DNA from: a virus
Strand: one strand, 5' to 3'
Length of the DNA: 64,000 nt
Virus record (IMG/VR): IMGVR_UViG_3300027970_000019
Location: 1 to 64,000 of that record
Under the pieces are notes generated by a model. The model was not told where the DNA came from. It did no database searches and was given only the letters and a program-made list of their open reading frames with translations. The position numbers and the translations under genes are program-made. This document shows positions 18,965-46,239 of this stretch, one piece after another. Each line of letters starts with the position of its first letter. Position 1 is the first letter of the stretch.

Positions 18965-19669
18965 ATGAACGACTTAATCAAAATTGCCGTTGTTGCTCTT
19001 ATCGTATATTTTGTTTGGGATTATATGAAAGAAAAGAAACTCACATTGTCTGAAATGTTTGTGATTCATCCCCACAATTCATTTAACCAACCAACAAACC
19101 CAATTGCTATTACAATTAATAATCAAAAGGAAATTGACAATAATAATATCAATAATGAATATGTTGTTGATAATAAAACTCAAGTTGAAACGATAAATCA
19201 TTCTGAGTTTCCAAATAAAACAATTGTTATCAAATCTTTGGGGAATGTTGATTATAGTGATATTACTGATGCCGTTAGGATTATCAAAGGTTTTTATGGA
19301 TTTAATTGTATTATTGGAGATAATGAACCGATAAGTGATGATATGTACATAAAAGGTGCGAATCATATCCTTAATGCCGATATTTGTTTGAATAAACTTT
19401 TTAGTCAACAAAATGTTCTATATATTGTTGATAAAGAATTATGGGCTAGAGGTGATTATTTAAGAGGTTATGCCGCAGTGAATGGTGGGACTGCTATAGT
19501 TAGAGGTGAAAAATCTTTCCTCCAAGAAACTATCATTCACGAATTGGGTCATACATTAGGTTTAGGTCATTGTGGTGATTTATCTTGTGTTATGGCGATA
19601 GATAATGATGTGTATGATAGTGGTAATTTTTGTAAAAATTGTAAAAGAAGACTAAACATCTATGAGTAA
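18965..19669 (+). CDS. Membrane-anchored archaemetzincin-like metalloprotease
   Basis: 234 aa. An N-terminal TM (residues 4-20), a 70-residue Asn-rich linker and a metzincin domain. The active site HELGHTLGLGHC - 4 aa - CVM with a later CKNC matches the archaemetzincin (M54) signature, in which three His bind the catalytic zinc and four Cys bind a second zinc; the gap to CKNC is shorter than usual. The topology suggests a protease tethered at the inner membrane. It is the first gene behind a host-like promoter and overlaps the next gene by 8 nt. Confidence 0.8.
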   Translation: MNDLIKIAVVALIVYFVWDYMKEKKLTLSEMFVIHPHNSFNQPTNPIAITINNQKEIDNNNINNEYVVDNKTQVETINHSEFPNKTIVIKSLGNVDYSDITDAVRIIKGFYGFNCIIGDNEPISDDMYIKGANHILNADICLNKLFSQQNVLYIVDKELWARGDYLRGYAAVNGGTAIVRGEKSFLQETIIHELGHTLGLGHCGDLSCVMAIDNDVYDSGNFCKNCKRRLNIYE

Positions 19670-20048: not shown

Positions 20049-20080
20049 TTGACAACCTCAATCTAATATTCTATACTTTC
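20049..20080 (+). promoter_or_regulatory. Probable promoter of the Ro60-like gene
   Basis: TTGAC at 20049 with TATACTTTC at 20072 is a weaker fit to the host-like pattern, about 24 nt before the ATG at 20104. Confidence 0.4.
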
Positions 20081-20103: not shown

Positions 20104-21507
20104 ATGAACTTCTTAGACGCATTACAAACAGAAGACACATTTACTGAAAATGGTATGGTTACAAATTCATCAACTCTTAATGAGTGTGTGAATTTATTCT
20201 TCACCATTGGAGCAATGAGAGGACAAGACAAACAAAGATTGTTGAGTAATTTCTCAAAGGCATTTAATGAAAATCCATTGACTGCGATGCGTATTCTATT
20301 TTGGTCAAGAGATGTTCGTGGAGGTGCTGGTGAAAGACAAATATTCCGTGATATAATCCAATTCTTAGCAGAAACGGATTCAGAAGTATTGGCAAAGAAC
20401 ATTAAGTTCATCCCAGAATTCGGTCGTTGGGACGATTTAACTGTCCTATTCAACACCAAAGTGAATAACGATGCGATGGCGACAATAATCCAGGGATTAG
20501 AATCCCGTAATGGATTGTGTGCAAAGTGGATGCCAAGAAAAGGGGTTATATTTAACTCCATCAGAAAGGCTATGGGTCTGACACCAAAATCTTTACGTAA
20601 AATGTTGGTTGAACTTTCCAACACCGTAGAACAAAAGATGTGTGCAAATGAGTGGTCAAATATTGAATACTCTAAACTACCATCTTTATCTATGGGAAGA
20701 TATTCAAAAGCGTTTCCAAAACACGATAGTCTTGGGTTTGGTCAATATATTCTCGCCCTTAAAAATGGTGAGACTAAGGTAAATGCAAGTGCAGTTTATC
20801 CTTATGATGTTGTCAAAACCTTGAACTTAGGTAATAGAGAATTAGCTATTGAACAATGGAAAGCTCTTCCAAATTTTATGGAAGGATGTACCGAAAGAAT
20901 ACTACCTGTTGTGGATGTTTCAGGATCTATGATTAGCAGTGTTGGTGGAAACGCCAATGTTACTTGTATGGATGTTGCAATATCATTGGGATTGTATATT
21001 TCTGAGAGAAATGAGGGTGTATTCAAAGATAGTTTTATTACTTTCTCTGAAAAACCTGAACTACAAAAACTAAGTGGTGATTTGTATCAAAGATATACAC
21101 AACTTAGTCGTTCTGATTGGGGTATGAGTACAAACCTTGAGAAAGTGTTTAGAGTAATCCTTGGTCAGGCAGTGAAACATAATGTCTCTGAGAATGAAAT
21201 GCCAACGAAAATCCTTATCTTGTCTGATATGGAATTTAATCAAGCAACAAACCTACCTTTAACTGCAATGCAGATGATTCGTAGGGAGTACGAACAACAC
21301 GGATACACTTTACCTAGTATCGTTTATTGGAATATTCAATCAAGAAATAAGAACTTCCCAGTTCGTTTCGATGAAAAGGGAACATCATTGATTTCTGGTT
21401 TGAGTCCTGCAATAATGAAATCAGTTTTGGTAGGAAATATTGATTCACCAGAATCAATTATGAATATCACGATTGACTCAGATAGATACAAGATGTTAGT
21501 AATCTAA
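20104..21507 (+). CDS. Ro60/TROVE-like RNA-binding protein (DUF2828 type) with vWA domain
   Basis: 467 aa. Residues 1-265 form a helical-repeat region with FWSRDVRGGAGERQIFRDII, IPEFGRWDDL, CAKWMPRKG and KMCANEWSNIEYSKLPS, the pattern I know from DUF2828 proteins. Residues about 270-460 form a von Willebrand A domain with the MIDAS motif DVSGSM and a later LSDMEF. Helical ring plus vWA is the architecture of Ro60/Rsr, which binds Y RNAs and misfolded RNA. Three similar structured RNAs lie directly downstream (21514-21839). RNA binding is inferred from architecture and context, not shown. Confidence 0.7.
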   Translation: MNFLDALQTEDTFTENGMVTNSSTLNECVNLFFTIGAMRGQDKQRLLSNFSKAFNENPLTAMRILFWSRDVRGGAGERQIFRDIIQFLAETDSEVLAKNIKFIPEFGRWDDLTVLFNTKVNNDAMATIIQGLESRNGLCAKWMPRKGVIFNSIRKAMGLTPKSLRKMLVELSNTVEQKMCANEWSNIEYSKLPSLSMGRYSKAFPKHDSLGFGQYILALKNGETKVNASAVYPYDVVKTLNLGNRELAIEQWKALPNFMEGCTERILPVVDVSGSMISSVGGNANVTCMDVAISLGLYISERNEGVFKDSFITFSEKPELQKLSGDLYQRYTQLSRSDWGMSTNLEKVFRVILGQAVKHNVSENEMPTKILILSDMEFNQATNLPLTAMQMIRREYEQHGYTLPSIVYWNIQSRNKNFPVRFDEKGTSLISGLSPAIMKSVLVGNIDSPESIMNITIDSDRYKMLVI

Positions 21508-21513
21508 CAATAT

Positions 21514-21648
21514 GGAAAAATTGGTTTATAAGGAATGATTCCTGCAAATCTAACTACAATCAATAACTAGAATCGAGATGGTTAAACTCACTTCTCCCAC
21601 CAAGGAGATAAATTTTTAACCAAAACCCATTCTGAAACCAATTTTTCC
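21514..21648 (+). ncRNA. Candidate Y-like RNA 1
   Basis: 135 nt. A perfect 14-bp end stem (GGAAAAATTGGTTT with AAACCAATTTTTCC), an asymmetric internal loop ATAAG versus TG, an inner stem GAATG/CATTC, then the conserved loop sequence TTCCTGCAAAT, and an internal hairpin TCTCC/GGAGA. A T-run follows. The same layout repeats twice more downstream with base-pair-preserving changes. Confidence 0.6.
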
Positions 21649-21699
21649 TATTTTTTTCTTGACTTAATGAAACTTTTTATCTAATTTTACGTTATATAT

Positions 21700-21766
21700 T
21701 GTACAAGGGATAGTTCCAGCAAATTAAAAATCAAATTATAGGAATTTTGAAAAACCTATCCTGACA
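21700..21766 (+). ncRNA. Candidate Y-like RNA 2
   Basis: Same layout as RNA 1: short outer pairing TGT/ACA, internal loop ACAAG versus TG, inner stem GGATAG/CTATCC, and loop start TTCCAGCAAAT. The inner stem differs from copies 1 and 3 on both strands, which is covariation. Confidence 0.5.
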
Positions 21767-21772
21767 TTTTAC

Positions 21773-21839
21773 TGGTTATAAAGAATGAGTTCAGCAAACT
21801 AAAACAAATCCAAATTGTAAAAAAAATCATTCTGAACCA
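21773..21839 (+). ncRNA. Candidate Y-like RNA 3
   Basis: Outer pairing TGGTT/AACCA, internal loop ATAAA versus TG, inner stem GAATGA/TCATTC, loop start GTTCAGCAAAC and an A-rich 3' side of the loop as in the other copies. Confidence 0.55.
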
Positions 21840-21882
21840 AACTTTTTAATAAATTACAAATACTTATAAACAAATACAAATA

Positions 21883-21978
21883 ATGAAACGCTCAAATAAA
21901 CATAATGTAATATCAATTCAACCGCAATTTAGCAATTGCTGGATTGGTAATATCTATGGTTTGGGTATAGTAAGTTAA
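21883..21978 (+). CDS. Possible 31-aa protein
   Basis: ATG at 21883 to TAA at 21976-21978 gives a 31-residue peptide (begins MKRSNKHNV) between the RNA repeats and the terminator. No family; may be chance. Confidence 0.3.
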   Translation: MKRSNKHNVISIQPQFSNCWIGNIYGLGIVS

Positions 21979-22006
21979 TTTTACATTTTATTATTTTTCA
22001 TAATAA

Positions 22007-22038
22007 AAACCCTGAACCGAAAAAGTTCAGGGTTTTTT
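22007..22038 (+). terminator. Terminator after the Ro60-like gene and its RNAs
   Basis: AACCCTGAAC - C GAAAAA - GTTCAGGGTT followed by T residues. It closes the transcription unit starting near 20080. Confidence 0.85.
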
Positions 22039-22070
22039 TTGTTCATTGACATCGTTGGTAAAAATATAAT

Positions 22071-22143
22071 CCCCCTTGGTATAAAGGTTGATTACATCAG
22101 ATTTTGATTCTGAAAATGGTGGTTCAATTCCATCAGGGGGAAC
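22071..22143 (+). tRNA. tRNA-Gln(TTG)
   Basis: Acceptor TCCCCCT/AGGGGGA, anticodon arm TCAGA-TTTTGAT-TCTGA, T arm GGTGG-TTCAATT-CCATC, discriminator A. The D stem is weak. Confidence 0.85.
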
Positions 22144-24830: not shown

Positions 24831-25589
24831 ATGGAAGAACTTAAAATTTGGCTTGAAGGTTTTATTAGCCATACTGAAAAGAAAATTGAAAATATGAAAC
24901 GAGTTGTTCCAGATCATAGGAACATTAAAAGATTTGAAGGTGAAGTTAGTATGGCTAAGAAAAATCAAGACGTAAAATTTGCTGTTGACTTAAAAACAAC
25001 TTACAGGAAGAAAAGCGGAGTTTCTAGTTTTACTTTGGGAAGTCACGGAAGTTATTTCAAAGAAAGGGACAAAAAGAAAAATATTCAGTTTCCCTACAAT
25101 CAATATTTAGCACATTTTTGTTTGGGTGTAATTTACACAAGAACAGACTTGGCTGATGATGCTTCTGAAACAGAAATTTATCAAGTTCAAGAACTTCAAG
25201 AAGAATACGAAACGCCTAACCAAAAAGTAGGAGAAAGAGAAGTAGCAACCGTTAAAAATTTAAAATCAATTACATCAGTGATTAAAGATTTTGACTTTTT
25301 TGTCGCAGAGAAATGGAAAATTGCGAGTGACAAACAAGGTTTGGGAAATACTGCAAATATCGGTGCTACACTTAGCATTGACGATTTAAGAAGTGAAAAT
25401 GGAATTTTTAGCCAACTAGGTGAAGAATGGTTTGATGAATATTGGATAAATCACGGTTCTGCAACAATGGTAAAAGATGGTAAGCCAACAAAAATTACCA
25501 CTCTTAAAGACTTTTTAGAATTTAAAGGTAGGACAGACTTATGGGATAAGATAGTAAAGTGTTCAACTTTAAAAAAGGATGCCGAATGA
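24831..25589 (+). CDS. EcoRV-like type II restriction endonuclease
   Basis: 252 aa. The stretches FAVDLKTTYRKK (EcoRV has DIKTTY with catalytic Asp90 and Lys92), FTLGSHGSYF, IQFPYNQYLAHF, GVIYTRTD, KWKIASD and GNTANIG line up in order with EcoRV, which cuts GATATC. The N-terminus is about 36 residues shorter than in EcoRV and the Asp74 position is not obvious; Glu36 or Glu38 may replace it. The stop overlaps the methyltransferase start (ATGA). Activity is uncertain because of the short N-terminus. Confidence 0.8.
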   Translation: MEELKIWLEGFISHTEKKIENMKRVVPDHRNIKRFEGEVSMAKKNQDVKFAVDLKTTYRKKSGVSSFTLGSHGSYFKERDKKKNIQFPYNQYLAHFCLGVIYTRTDLADDASETEIYQVQELQEEYETPNQKVGEREVATVKNLKSITSVIKDFDFFVAEKWKIASDKQGLGNTANIGATLSIDDLRSENGIFSQLGEEWFDEYWINHGSATMVKDGKPTKITTLKDFLEFKGRTDLWDKIVKCSTLKKDAE

Positions 25590-26503
25590 AAGTAATTGTT
25601 CCACCAATAAAAAGTCAGGGCATAAAAACCAAGCTAGTTCCTTGGATTATGGAACTTGCACCAAAGGTTCAAGGTAAATGGATAGAACCATTTCTTGGAA
25701 CTGGTGTAGTTGCGTTTAATTCGGGTTACAAAAAAGCGATTTTAAACGATACAAATCCTCATATTATCAATTTTTATAAAGGTATTCAGGCAAAAGAAAT
25801 TACTGCACCTTTGATGAAACACTATCTTGAACAAGAAGGAGCGATTTTAAGTGAAGCCGACAATAATGGTTATGAGCATTATTTAAAAGTTCGTTCTCGT
25901 TTCAATGCTGGAGAATTTTCACCTTACGATTTTATTTTCCTTTCAAGAGCAGGATTTAATGGAATGATGAGATTTAACAACAAAGGTCATTGGAATATTC
26001 CATTCTGTAAAAAACCAGAACGTTTTGCTCAAGCATACGTGACAAAAATCACAAATCAAGTTGCAACGGTTTCTCAAATCATTCAAACTGAGCCTGACTG
26101 GACTTTTCACAACAAATCATTTGCTGACATAATACCTTTAGCTACTGAAAACGACATTATTTATTGCGACCCACCATATTACGGCAGACACGTTGACTAT
26201 TTTAACGGTTGGACAGAACAAGACGAAGAACTTCTATTCAATTTATTAAGTGAAACAAAAGCAAAATTTATTCTTTCAACTTGGCATCATAACGACTGGC
26301 GACAAAATGAAATGATTGAAAAATTTTGGAGTAAATTTAATGTAGTCACAAAAGACCATTTTTATCATAATGGCGGTAGTATTGAAAATAGACGGACAGT
26401 TGTTGAAGCATTAGTCTGCAACTTTAATACAGACCATTTTGACCAACACAATCACGGTCAGAAAGAAAAAATAAAATTATATGACGAATGTAAAAATTGG
26501 TGA
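25586..26503 (+). CDS. D12-class adenine-N6 DNA methyltransferase (EcoRV-type partner)
   Basis: 305 aa from ATG 25586. SAM-binding motif EPFLGTGVVAFN near residue 33 and catalytic DPPY (IIYCDPPYYG) near residue 190, followed by LSTWHHNDWR, typical of D12 (Dam-like) methyltransferases that include M.EcoRV. Overlap with the endonuclease gene gives a compact R-M operon. It should protect the phage and host DNA from the companion enzyme. GATATC sites are common in this window. Confidence 0.9.
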   Translation: MKVIVPPIKSQGIKTKLVPWIMELAPKVQGKWIEPFLGTGVVAFNSGYKKAILNDTNPHIINFYKGIQAKEITAPLMKHYLEQEGAILSEADNNGYEHYLKVRSRFNAGEFSPYDFIFLSRAGFNGMMRFNNKGHWNIPFCKKPERFAQAYVTKITNQVATVSQIIQTEPDWTFHNKSFADIIPLATENDIIYCDPPYYGRHVDYFNGWTEQDEELLFNLLSETKAKFILSTWHHNDWRQNEMIEKFWSKFNVVTKDHFYHNGGSIENRRTVVEALVCNFNTDHFDQHNHGQKEKIKLYDECKNW

Positions 26504-26693
26504 GTACCAGGTTGGTGATAAATTATATATTGATTATAGTGAAGATAATCCCAACAATCAGTACATTGAGATTAGATCCATAGTTGACATGGAGGTAGTT
26601 GTTTTTTTAGATGAAAAAAATAATTACAAAATGGAAACTATTCATTACTTTAATGTGTTATGTAGATGTAACTCTTTAAAACGAATACAATAA
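26481..26693 (+). CDS. Small beta-rich hypothetical protein
   Basis: 70 aa, overlaps the methyltransferase end by 23 nt. GEYQVGDKLYIDYSEDN and MEVVVFLDEKNNYKMET suggest a small SH3-like barrel; similar in style to the product of 33289. Not obviously part of the R-M system. Confidence 0.5.
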   Translation: MTNVKIGEYQVGDKLYIDYSEDNPNNQYIEIRSIVDMEVVVFLDEKNNYKMETIHYFNVLCRCNSLKRIQ

Positions 26694-26714
26694 CTCAATA
26701 AAAACAAATAAAAA

Positions 26715-26963
26715 ATGAAAAAAGTCCTCATCGGTTTGACACTCAGTTTAGTTTTAACCAGTTGTTTTGGAGAACCTACCGAGATTGTTAAAACAAACAA
26801 CAACGATTTCAATATTGAACTTCTATTTGAAGTTGATGGTTGTAAGGTTTATAGATTTTGGGATCGTGGTTACAAATATTTCACAACTTGTAATGGTTCT
26901 GTAAATTGGAAAACAGGTGATAAACATTCTGATAAAAAGGAAATACAAACCGGTATAAAATAA
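26715..26963 (+). CDS. Small lipoprotein, DUF4884-like
   Basis: 82 aa. Signal peptide with lipobox LTSC (Cys at residue 17). The mature part LLFEVDGCKVYRFWDRGYKY then FTTC matches a short family frequent in Bacteroidota and their phages (DUF4884 by recollection). Envelope location; a superinfection-exclusion role is possible but unproven. Confidence 0.7.
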   Translation: MKKVLIGLTLSLVLTSCFGEPTEIVKTNNNDFNIELLFEVDGCKVYRFWDRGYKYFTTCNGSVNWKTGDKHSDKKEIQTGIK

Positions 26964-31686: not shown

Positions 31687-31780
31687 AGTTAGGTGGTGTA
31701 ATTGGTAGACACTCGCTTAAAGGTGCGGTTAGTCAACGAAATGTAAAGCTAACGTATAGGTTCGAATCCTGTCCTAACTA
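31687..31780 (+). tRNA. Leu-like class II tRNA with 8-nt anticodon loop
   Basis: Acceptor AGTTAGG/CCTAACT, D arm GTGT-AATTGGTAG-ACAC, variable arm GTTAG/CTAAC, T arm ATAGG-TTCGAAT-CCTGT, discriminator A. The anticodon stem TCGC/GCGG closes an eight-base loop TTAAAGGT, one base longer than normal, so the anticodon is ambiguous. Confidence 0.65.
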
Positions 31781-31862
31781 CTTGGTTGGGGAGAGACTGT
31801 TACTAATTCATAGAAGCCTCCATAATGGCGACCCTCTTAACGGTGGCGTAGAATTAGAATTT

Positions 31863-31955
31863 AGTTAGGTAGTTTAACTGGTGAAAACGGGGGAGGTTTT
31901 ACAAACTATTAAATTAGTACCAAATCTGTTACAGGTTCGAATCCTGTCCTGACTA
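31863..31955 (+). tRNA. Class II-like tRNA with abnormal anticodon region
   Basis: Acceptor AGTTAGG/CCTGACT, D arm GTTT-AACTGGTGA-AAAC and T arm ACAGG-TTCGAAT-CCTGT are regular, and ACTA/TAGT can form a variable arm. No proper 5-bp anticodon stem is found in the 42 nt between D and T arms. Isotype unassigned; may be a pseudogene. Confidence 0.5.
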
Positions 31956-32025
31956 CAAAAAAATTACCAAGAATCAAATAAATTGAAATTTTTTGGTTAG
32001 GATACTAAACTTACGAACACTTGTG

Positions 32026-45837: not shown

Positions 45838-45858
45838 GATAAGAACAAAAACTTCCGA

Positions 45859-46239
45859 TGTGGAGATACGGGGAATCGAACCCCGGTGTCGCCCATCTTA
45901 ACTATTAAGGACTACATGTTTAGGACAACATTATTCGCAATGTTCCGAACTACTTGATTTTTATATCCCCCAAAATCAACAAAATCGGCCAATTCATTTT
46001 TAGGGATGAGAATTAGTTAGACAACCCTATAGTACTCCTGTTCCTGAGTGAATGTACCCCGACTCGAAAGTAATGACCTATTAACTAGGCTACTACCGTT
46101 TCTTCTGAACGGATTAAACCGACAGCAGAAAGTTTGTCAAAGATGTTGCCATCTGTGTTTTAAACCAGTTTAACAGACTTAGTTCAGGTCTGACATGCCC
46201 CTAATAACCAACAATGTCGATCGATGCCAATTTATCCCC
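45859..46239 (-). ncRNA. ssrA: tmRNA (ssrA)
   Basis: About 380 nt, leftward. 5' end GGGGATAAATTGGC and 3' end TATCTCC form a 7-bp acceptor stem (GGGGATA/TATCTCC); the T arm is CGGGG-TTCGATT-CCCCG, discriminator A, then CA. The D-loop-like AATTGGCATCGATCGAC start is typical of tmRNA. One frame gives a 21-codon tag starting Gly-Asn-Ile and ending EETVVA before TAG; another, starting Ala-Thr-Ser, is possible. tmRNA frees stalled ribosomes with SmpB (host supplied). Confidence 0.85.

What the first reader, a model, noticed from the sequence alone, without database searches (positions are those of the whole stretch)
20104..22038. Phage Ro60-like protein with three covarying structured RNAs directly downstream
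A DUF2828-type helical-repeat plus vWA (MIDAS DVSGSM) protein is followed by three RNAs sharing one layout: outer stem, asymmetric internal loop A(U/C)AA(G/A) versus UG, 5-6 bp inner stem, then a conserved UUC(C)NGCAAA loop start. The inner stems GAATG/CATTC, GGATAG/CTATCC and GAATGA/TCATTC differ while keeping pairing. Bacterial Ro60 (Rsr) genes are known to sit beside Y RNA genes, whose end stem with a conserved internal loop binds Ro60. A phage Ro60-Y-like ribonucleoprotein encoded beside a tRNA array would be new to me.
Basis: partly seen in the sequence, partly recalled or inferred. Interest (0 to 1): 0.88.

Follow-up and report, generated by a model that had tools for sequence, protein, structure and literature searches.

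The report
Phage Ro60-like protein with Y-like RNAs
This virus of bacteria carries a gene for a ring-shaped RNA-handling protein resembling animal Ro60, together with three small structured RNAs of a kind that also turns up in other viruses with the same gene and that looks strikingly like an orphan RNA class of slime moulds.

Summary
The gene at 20104-21507 (PHROG 850; Pfam DUF2828+DUF7788) has a predicted Ro60 fold (VIA Z 13-19 to ten Ro60/TROVE entries; first other row 11.7), and three RNAs follow it at 21516-21839. They belong to a covarying RNA family: AA-[RG.. stem]-UUACAGCAA...[stem CY]-G, sometimes with an outer stem. A covariance model from 30 copies finds it in 12 of 15 records with the gene (7 of 10 that gave no seed) and in 0 of 6 phages without it (E<=0.1). 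An RNA-only DNA pattern leads back to the gene in 42 of 47 stretches, each on the same strand. Five longer copies in four phages hold a permuted tRNA-like module; the window's RNA1 does not. Phage Ro60 and phage Y RNAs were already proposed (mycobacteriophages, Listeria phage cka15; a Thermus-phage Ro60 is solved), so the kind is known. New here: one signature across distant tailed phages, and its likeness to Dictyostelium Class I RNA (RF01414), reported as unique to dictyostelids: 15 of 21 RF01414 hits (E<=0.1) in these records fall on our RNAs, all below Rfam's cut-off. Binding and function are inferred; nothing was tested biochemically.

The parts
20049..20077 (+). sigma-70-like promoter TTGACA-17-TATACT upstream of the gene
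   Evidence: consensus scan, 11 of 12; promoter-like sites as a whole are not enriched in this region (8 found, shuffles 11.1), so inferred
20104..21507 (+). Ro60-like protein: helical repeat (DUF2828) plus vWA domain with MIDAS (DUF7788), PHROG 850
   Evidence: AF2 model pLDDT 78.7, pTM 0.73; Ro60 fold
21516..21646 (+). Y-like RNA 1 (131 nt): 12-bp outer stem, inner stem, CTGCAAA loop start, long interior with a further hairpin
   Evidence: R1 only 19.6 bits, E 0.59 (long interior)
21700..21766 (+). Y-like RNA 2 (67 nt)
   Evidence: R1 44.5 bits (it is a seed of R1); RF01414 20.0 bits
21773..21839 (+). Y-like RNA 3 (67 nt)
   Evidence: R1 42.1 bits (it is a seed of R1); RF01414 22.8 bits
22005..22037 (+). 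intrinsic terminator-like hairpin downstream of the RNAs
   Evidence: 3 such sites found, shuffles 1.1
22070..22143 (+). tRNA-Gln, first of the phage tRNA genes that follow
   Evidence: ARAGORN, 16 tRNA genes in the window

Best explanation
The locus encodes a phage version of the Ro60-Y RNA particle. Shown computationally: a protein with the predicted Ro60 fold (helical repeat plus a vWA domain with an intact MIDAS) and, beside it, RNAs of one covarying family whose presence follows the gene across distant phages. Inferred: the conserved end of each RNA (AA-RG stem, flanked on one side by UUACAGCAA and on the other by CY-G) is the site the protein binds, while the variable interior, which in some phages is a permuted tRNA-like module, differs between RNAs and recruits or imitates something else (a host exoribonuclease such as PNPase, or tRNA enzymes). 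The most likely job is to hold or present structured or damaged RNA, especially tRNA, for degradation or quality control during infection, in phages that bring their own tRNAs.
For: Fold: VIA Z 18.6 (9kop, TROVE), 17.8/17.7/17.5 (Ro autoantigen 2i91, 1yvr, 1yvp), 17.5 (9l5y, Thermus phage Ro60), 13.1 (2nvo, D. radiodurans Rsr); ten such entries over 384-400 residues; first other row 11.7 over 183. MIDAS residues D271, S273, S275, T343, D375 invariant in 26 relatives. RNA family: all 7 inner pairs show two-sided changes, covariation score 0.927 against 0.216 (sd 0.030) in shuffles (rows were chosen for pairing, and the number of pair types does not exceed shuffles, 354 of 500 as high). R1 hits in 12 of 15 gene-bearing records (the window's own and 14 phages), 7 of 10 of those that gave no seed; 0 of 6 phages without the gene at E<=0.1 (gene 15 of 15 against 0 of 6). 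R1 hits at E<=0.05 in 7 of the 10 loci found in bacterial assemblies (loci). In 77 of the 80 loci L001-L080, 61 have an R1 hit at E<=0.05, and all 79 hits at E<=1 lie on the gene's strand. Reverse test: 42 of 47 stretches with an RNA-only pattern hold the gene, 42 of 42 on the same strand. Permuted T-arm / closed acceptor / D-arm modules: rotated, 5 of 6 tested are read as tRNA by ARAGORN, 0 of 6 as they stand, in the first run; with relaxed scoring native and antisense calls appear too. In Listeria phage cka15 the relative CKA15_055 was found in CsCl-purified particles with 20 peptides (passage).
Against: No expression, binding or phenotype data for these RNAs. No TROVE (PF05731) match. No Rfam Y RNA match in the window. 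The window's RNA1 shows no T- or D-arm, and RNA2 and RNA3 are too short for one. The RNAs are not always next to the gene: about 7-11 kb away in KVP40, Ci1, phiAS5 and two of the S13 copies, and about 200 kb away in GAP32. RtcB, the partner of Rsr in some bacteria, is in only 2 of the 15 records, so a general RNA-repair operon is not supported. No R1 match with default filters in Enterococcus Bop, Acinetobacter ME3 and Prevotella Lak-B4. The PHROG 850 profile also rings in 6 of 14 cellular control genomes, so it is not specific to this phage protein.
Confidence: 0.8

Rival explanations
1. The RNAs are cis-acting: 3'-UTR or leader elements (protection, processing or attenuation) that the protein binds to regulate its own mRNA, rather than trans-acting Y-like RNAs.
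For: In the window and many relatives the first RNA starts about 10-30 nt after the last codon on the same strand; in LAh9, CPX and Listeria RNAs lie directly upstream of the gene.
Against: Several copies in many of the phages, interleaved with tRNA genes in UAB_69, 7-11 kb away in KVP40, Ci1 and phiAS5, and about 200 kb away in GAP32; a cis-element would not be expected to carry a tRNA-like module.
Confidence: 0.1
2. The RNA-protein particle is a virion component that is injected and acts at once on host RNA (shut-off or protection), rather than a quality-control factor made during infection.
For: CKA15_055, the Listeria relative, was detected in CsCl-purified particles with 20 peptides and 57% coverage (passage of PMC12282133).
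Against: The authors say that, given the sensitivity of the method, they cannot conclude that all such proteins are genuinely particle-associated (passage); a single phage; no RNA measured in particles in the passages seen.
Confidence: 0.2
3. The tRNA-like RNAs are decoys for host anticodon nucleases, and the protein stabilises them.
For: tRNA-like modules in 4 phages; several gene-bearing phages have tRNA genes around the locus; a competitive-inhibitor role was suggested for Salmonella YrlA (PMC7790460, passage).
Against: Of 20 long-interior RNAs looked at, only 4 show a T-arm followed by a D-arm by pattern, a fifth (S13) only through ARAGORN after rotation; the short copies have no room for one; no conserved anticodon loop was seen.
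Confidence: 0.15
4. Chance hairpins or inverted repeats near an unrelated vWA protein.
For: RNA2 and RNA3 are not unusually stable; the flanks are AT-rich.
Against: 62 copies against 2.6 in shuffles; hits in held-out phages and the reverse linkage.
Confidence: 0.01

Closest known systems
Bacterial Ro60 (Rsr) with Y RNAs (D. radiodurans Y RNA; Salmonella YrlA/YrlB), and the Y RNAs reported in mycobacteriophages by Chen et al. 2014 (not held; cited so in PMC12282133)
   Same: Ro60 fold; small RNAs with paired ends encoded near the gene; in some phages a tRNA-like module, as YrlA has (tRNA-like domain: PMC7790460, passage; its permuted order is recalled)
   Different: Protein branch DUF2828/DUF7788 without a TROVE Pfam match; RNA signature RG-stem-UUACAGCAA...CY-G, with no Rfam match at threshold in the window; often several copies per phage; RtcB in only 2 of 15 records. 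Whether TROVE-type bacterial Y RNAs carry CAGCAA could not be tested
Listeria phage cka15 CKA15_055 and its putative Y RNAs (PMC12282133, 2025; passages)
   Same: Same protein family (54 Listeria records match); Rsr-like by HHpred in that paper; it proposed that abundant RNAs nearby may be Y RNAs
   Different: The passages seen name no Y RNA sequence. The only one of its three abundant regions with coordinates that I saw (26,236-26,727) matches ROOL RNA (90.1 bits, cut-off 99.1). The Y-like trio lies at 25,282-25,558, directly upstream of CKA15_055
Ro60 of Thermus phage phiLo (PDB 9l5y)
   Same: Phage protein with Ro60 fold; Foldseek's best match to our model (E 3.9e-8)
   Different: 18% identity; molecule named TROVE domain-containing protein; its RNAs could not be examined here
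Dictyostelium Class I RNA (Rfam RF01414; Kjellin et al. 2021, PMC7919456, passages)
   Same: AAG start and CUGU end, short covarying stem between the ends, 11-nt motif next to the 5' strand (CCUUACAGCAA in Rfam's consensus), variable interior, genes often clustered
   Different: Eukaryotic, own promoter element, known direct binder is an RRM protein (Rnp1A); phage copies score about 18-31 bits against a cut-off of 41.5 and are about 1 nt shorter between stem start and CAGCAA

Membership tests
Ro60 / TROVE proteins | Helical-repeat ring plus vWA domain (Ro60 fold) | tested here: met
   VIA Z 13.1-18.6 over 384-400 residues to ten Ro60/TROVE/Rsr entries; Foldseek's top 4 rows are all Ro60. On a predicted model; ring closure itself was not measured
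Ro60 / TROVE proteins | Sequence match to Pfam TROVE PF05731 | tested here: not met
   Pfam scan: only DUF2828 and DUF7788 above cut-off; no PF05731 in the own record. I therefore call it Ro60-like, not a TROVE member
Ro60 / TROVE proteins | Intact MIDAS (DxSxS...T...D) | tested here: met
   D271, S273, S275, T343, D375 invariant in 26 sequences; the pattern itself is recalled
Ro60 / TROVE proteins | Binds Y RNA on the outer ring and misfolded RNA ends in the hole | not testable with these tools
   needs biochemistry
Bacterial Y RNAs | Encoded near a Ro60 gene | tested here: met
   42 of 47 pattern stretches; 61 of 77 loci; but 7-11 kb away in some T4-like phages and about 200 kb in GAP32
Bacterial Y RNAs | 5' and 3' ends paired in a stem interrupted by a loop or bulge | tested here: met
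   RNA1 and RNA3 clear, RNA2 with a 3-bp outer stem; the outer stem is not general in the family
Bacterial Y RNAs | At least one RNA per genome with a tRNA-like domain (Chen 2014, recalled) | tested here: inconclusive
   Seen in Snenia, Bop (two), UAB_69 and, only after rotation, S13; not in the window's RNA1; not examined in all phages
Bacterial Y RNAs | Match to an Rfam Y RNA family | tested here: not met
   none at gathering threshold in the window; none up to E 10 in 21490-21880
Dictyostelium Class I RNA | Stem, 11-nt motif and end signature as in RF01414 | tested here: met
   15 of 21 RF01414 hits (E<=0.1) in 15 records fall on R1 hits that cover 0.05% of the sequence, 1 more on a seed RNA, 4 on places scored with R1 only afterwards, 1 on none
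Dictyostelium Class I RNA | Score above Rfam's cut-off of 41.5 bits | tested here: not met
   0 of 15 records; best 30.7 bits, in L017
Dictyostelium Class I RNA | Found in a dictyostelid, with the DUSE promoter element | tested here: not met
   these are phage records; DUSE itself was not searched for

The most novel reading that the evidence does not exclude
Phage Y-like RNAs and Dictyostelium Class I RNAs are one structural class, AAG-stem-UUACAGCAA...stem-CUGU, read by Ro60-fold proteins. Class I RNAs, an orphan family reported as unique to social amoebas, would then be Y-like RNAs with an unrecognised Ro60/DUF2828-type partner, and the phage particle would be a widespread viral form of the same RNP.
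Probability: 0.35. Interest if true: 0.92.

Novelty: new variant of a known kind. Interest (0 to 1): 0.74.

Why it matters
682 of 50,697 phage records, among them Vibrio, Escherichia, Salmonella, Listeria, Campylobacter, Enterococcus, Staphylococcus and mycobacterial phages, carry a relative of this gene. In the papers I saw, its RNA partners were reported for mycobacteriophages or only guessed at. A single signature and a covariance model make partner RNAs findable in distant phages and the particle testable in laboratory phages. The likeness to Dictyostelium Class I RNA gives an orphan eukaryotic RNA class a concrete hypothesis for a protein partner. It also assigns the region of the most transcribed annotated genes of a Listeria phage to ROOL-like RNA rather than to Y RNA.

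Tried and rejected
A TROVE (PF05731) match was sought and not found. PDB sequence searches gave no significant Ro60 match: the single sequence none (best E 0.072); the profile touched 9l5y and 9kop only at E 0.18, and its only row under 0.001 (engineered repeat protein 4rv1, E 5e-4) has no stretch that passes on its own. The Ro60 link therefore rests on fold comparison. RtcB as a general partner: 2 of 15, 0 of 6 controls, rejected. The Listeria paper's region 26,236-26,727 as a Y RNA: it is ROOL-like, rejected; a first scan of the whole 4.2-kb stretch, to E 0.01, missed it. RF01414 E-values taken at face value: rejected, because phage T4, which lacks the gene, has a hit at E 0.0024 (24.3 bits) inside coding sequence 31.2, and RF01414 rings in 4 of 6 control phages at E<=1 and in 7 of 14 control genomes; only the coincidence of positions is used. 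Seven RNAs of the 37-row alignment A2 were left out of A3: one each from L150, L167 and L047, two each from L169 and L166; five of the seven were misaligned at the 3' end. Loci L004, L033 and L038 of the 80 were not scanned with R1, because the DNA held ends in the gene or within 100 bases of it. Of the 16 of 77 loci without an R1 hit at E<=0.05, eight clearly show a long-interior version of the motif (L015, L016, L020, L026, L036, L045, L074, L076); the other eight were not settled one by one. In one search some inner stems of the 44 RNAs were misassigned (for example L016, L020, L031, L040), which weakens the outer-stem test. ME3 and Lak-B4 RNAs were looked at only because RF01414 pointed there; Lak scores 13.6 bits with R1 and stays uncertain. 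Whether TROVE-type bacterial Y RNAs carry CAGCAA could not be tested: the attempts to draw bacterial genomes failed and Chen et al. 2014 is not held. Whether Dictyostelium encodes a DUF2828 or TROVE protein could not be tested; paper searches gave nothing. Novelty rests on searches of the held open-access library only and on PMC7919456, whose text holds no 'phage', 'Y RNA' or 'Ro60'.
Full report
What is there. The window belongs to a 71,712-base IMG/VR virus record. ORF 20104-21507 encodes 467 aa and matches DUF2828 and DUF7788 and PHROG 850, labelled 'RNA-binding protein'. A consensus-like promoter precedes it, a terminator-like hairpin lies at 22005-22037, and tRNA genes follow (16 in the window).

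The protein. AlphaFold2 on 26 relatives gave pLDDT 78.7 and pTM 0.73; residues 1-24 and 424-431 are unreliable. Foldseek's four best PDB rows are all Ro60, led by Ro60 of Thermus phage phiLo (E 3.9e-8). VIA-align gives Z 13.1-18.6 over 384-400 residues to ten Ro60/TROVE/Rsr entries, and 11.7 over 183 residues (the vWA part) to the first other entry. MIDAS residues are invariant in 26 sequences. No TROVE Pfam match exists, and sequence searches of the PDB would not have shown the link. I therefore call it Ro60-like. The family is widespread: 682 of 50,697 phage records have a relative, all under 60% identity, and 549 IMG/VR stretches encode one in the wider scan, of which 80 were kept.

The RNA family. 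A motif scanner found 62 copies in 106 flanks of the gene, against 4 on the opposite strand and 2.6 in shuffles. The rule was tuned on part of this material, so I also tested it otherwise. A 30-row alignment (A3) covers IMG/VR phages and Aeromonas, Campylobacter, Felix O1-like and Listeria phages; all seven inner pairs show two-sided changes (rows had been chosen for pairing, and the count of pair types is no higher than in shuffles). Model R1, run over whole records, hits 12 of 15 records with the gene at E<=0.1. Five of the 15 gave seeds; of the ten others, 7 have hits (KVP40, Ci1, S13, phiAS5, Snenia, 6ec, GAP32; Snenia only at E 0.06-0.07) and 3 do not (Bop, ME3, Lak-B4). With filters off, Bop has three copies (20-25 bits) and ME3 one (29.8 bits), while Lak-B4 stays weak at 13.6 bits (the ME3 and Lak places were chosen from RF01414 hits). 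Six phages without the gene (T4, SPO1, phiKZ, K, RB43, P1) have no hit at E<=0.1; the best is 0.86. The PHROG profile itself also rings in 6 of 14 cellular control genomes. Several records have clusters of copies: nine hits in LAh9, four in UAB_69. Of ten loci found in bacterial assemblies, 7 have an R1 hit at E<=0.05. In 77 of the 80 nearest IMG/VR loci, 61 have a hit at E<=0.05, and all 79 hits at E<=1 are on the gene's strand. In the other direction, an exact pattern for one version of the RNA, searched in IMG/VR without reference to the gene, gave 47 stretches; 42 hold the gene or part of it, each on the same strand. Four of the five others have at most about 400 bases held on the gene's usual side; L230 is a real exception within the DNA held. 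Many of these loci are near-identical phages, so the numbers are not independent events.

Signature. From the alignment: A(A)-[R-G-n4-5]-n3-4-CAGCAA(A)...[n4-5-C-Y]-G; UUA before CAGCAA is common. An outer stem beyond a small asymmetric loop is strong in some phages (12 bp in window RNA1 and in S13) and not seen in others such as two Listeria copies. RNA1 is supported by 9 relatives: 31 pairs, 17 with two-sided changes.

tRNA-like modules. Of 20 long-interior RNAs searched by pattern, four (Snenia, Enterococcus Bop twice, UAB_69) contain, in this order, a T-arm and a D-arm motif, with an acceptor-like stem closed by a short loop between them in the predicted folds: a circularly permuted tRNA inside the Y-like stem. 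Rotating six candidates makes ARAGORN call a tRNA in 5 of 6 (these four and S13, which the pattern had missed); the native strands give 0 of 6 in that run. With relaxed scoring the numbers blur, as native strands and antisense calls appear too. L008, a near relative of the window, has only a T-arm motif, and the window's RNA1 has neither. A tRNA-like domain is known for bacterial YrlA (PMC7790460, passages); that its order is permuted is my recollection of the YrlA structure papers, which were not seen.

Dictyostelium Class I RNA. Rfam's RF01414 gave sub-threshold matches on RNA2 and RNA3 and on other phage copies. Run over the 15 records it gives 21 hits at E<=0.1: 15 lie on R1 hits, which cover 0.05% of the sequence searched, 1 on a seed RNA, 4 on places scored with R1 only afterwards because RF01414 pointed there, 1 on none. 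None reaches Rfam's cut-off, and a chance hit at E 0.0024 occurs in T4 inside a coding sequence, so single E-values mean little; the coincidence of places does. Kjellin et al. describe Class I RNAs as starting with AAG, ending with CUGU, with a short covarying stem and an 11-nt motif, found in no organism outside dictyostelids that they searched (PMC7919456, passages). The phage RNAs share these features. This may be common descent or convergence on a similar binding surface; I cannot tell which.

Prior knowledge and a correction. The Listeria cka15 paper proposed that CKA15_055 is an Rsr and that highly transcribed RNAs nearby may be Y RNAs, citing Chen et al. 2014 for mycobacteriophages (PMC12282133, passages). 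One of its three most transcribed regions, 26,236-26,727, holds CKA15_059-061; CKA15_059 and 060 are its most transcribed annotated genes. That region matches ROOL RNA over the whole model (L251 763-1314 = 26,195-26,746; 90.1 bits, E 8e-19, just under the cut-off 99.1). The Y-like trio lies at 25,282-25,558, directly upstream of CKA15_055 and unannotated. The passages I read do not say whether the trio is among the other two regions. The protein was detected in purified particles, with the authors' own caution. A jumbo-phage survey also notes TROVE proteins in a small subset of its phages (PMC7824862, passages).

How it probably works. By analogy with Ro60, the shared stem end docks on the protein and the variable interior gives each RNA its partner or target. 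RtcB is present in only 2 of 15, so the RNA-repair operon of Salmonella is not the general context. tRNA genes lie around the locus in several gene-bearing phages, which fits a role around tRNA or other structured RNA; this was not tested statistically. Every step after 'Ro60 fold plus co-occurring RNA family' is inference.

Verdict. Observation confirmed, interpretation supported, kind already known in outline, with a new RNA signature shared by distant phages and an unexpected eukaryotic look-alike.

Noticed in passing
L251 763-1314 (Listeria phage cka15 OR088597.1 26,195-26,746, minus strand); L165 1962-2513: ROOL-like RNA (RF03087, 90.1 and 87.4 bits, cut-off 99.1) covers one of the most transcribed regions of the phage in a 2025 paper, annotated there as small ORFs CKA15_059-061.
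   Followed up: yes
L165 about 1500-1830: Unannotated stretch behind a strong-looking promoter (TTGACA..TATACT) between a CDS and a tRNA gene in Listeria phage LP-124; no Rfam match listed; perhaps another RNA.
   Followed up: no
L160 4356-4598 (Cronobacter phage S13): Two neighbouring tRNA genes of 121 and 113 nt carry an insert with the same 26-nt core (CGCAAACTGAYAAGTTTGTATTCAGC), apparently before the anticodon arm; the core has no exact match in IMG/VR.
   Followed up: partly
window 31687-31781 and 31863-31956: Unusually long predicted tRNAs (95 and 94 nt), one with an anticodon called as four bases.
   Followed up: no
window 45858-46239 (-): Phage-encoded tmRNA (RF00023, 83 bits).
   Followed up: no
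window 18965-19669: Archaemetzincin-like (Peptidase M54) protein two genes upstream of the Ro60-like gene.
   Followed up: no
L100 4631-4839: Group I intron (RF00028, 51.5 bits, cut-off 50) downstream of the Ro60-like gene in an IMG/VR relative.
   Followed up: no
NC_016562.1 95530-96138 (record of L163): Campylobacter phage CPX has a second, partial match to PHROG 850 (72.6 bits, 232-aa open frame) far from the full-length gene.
   Followed up: no
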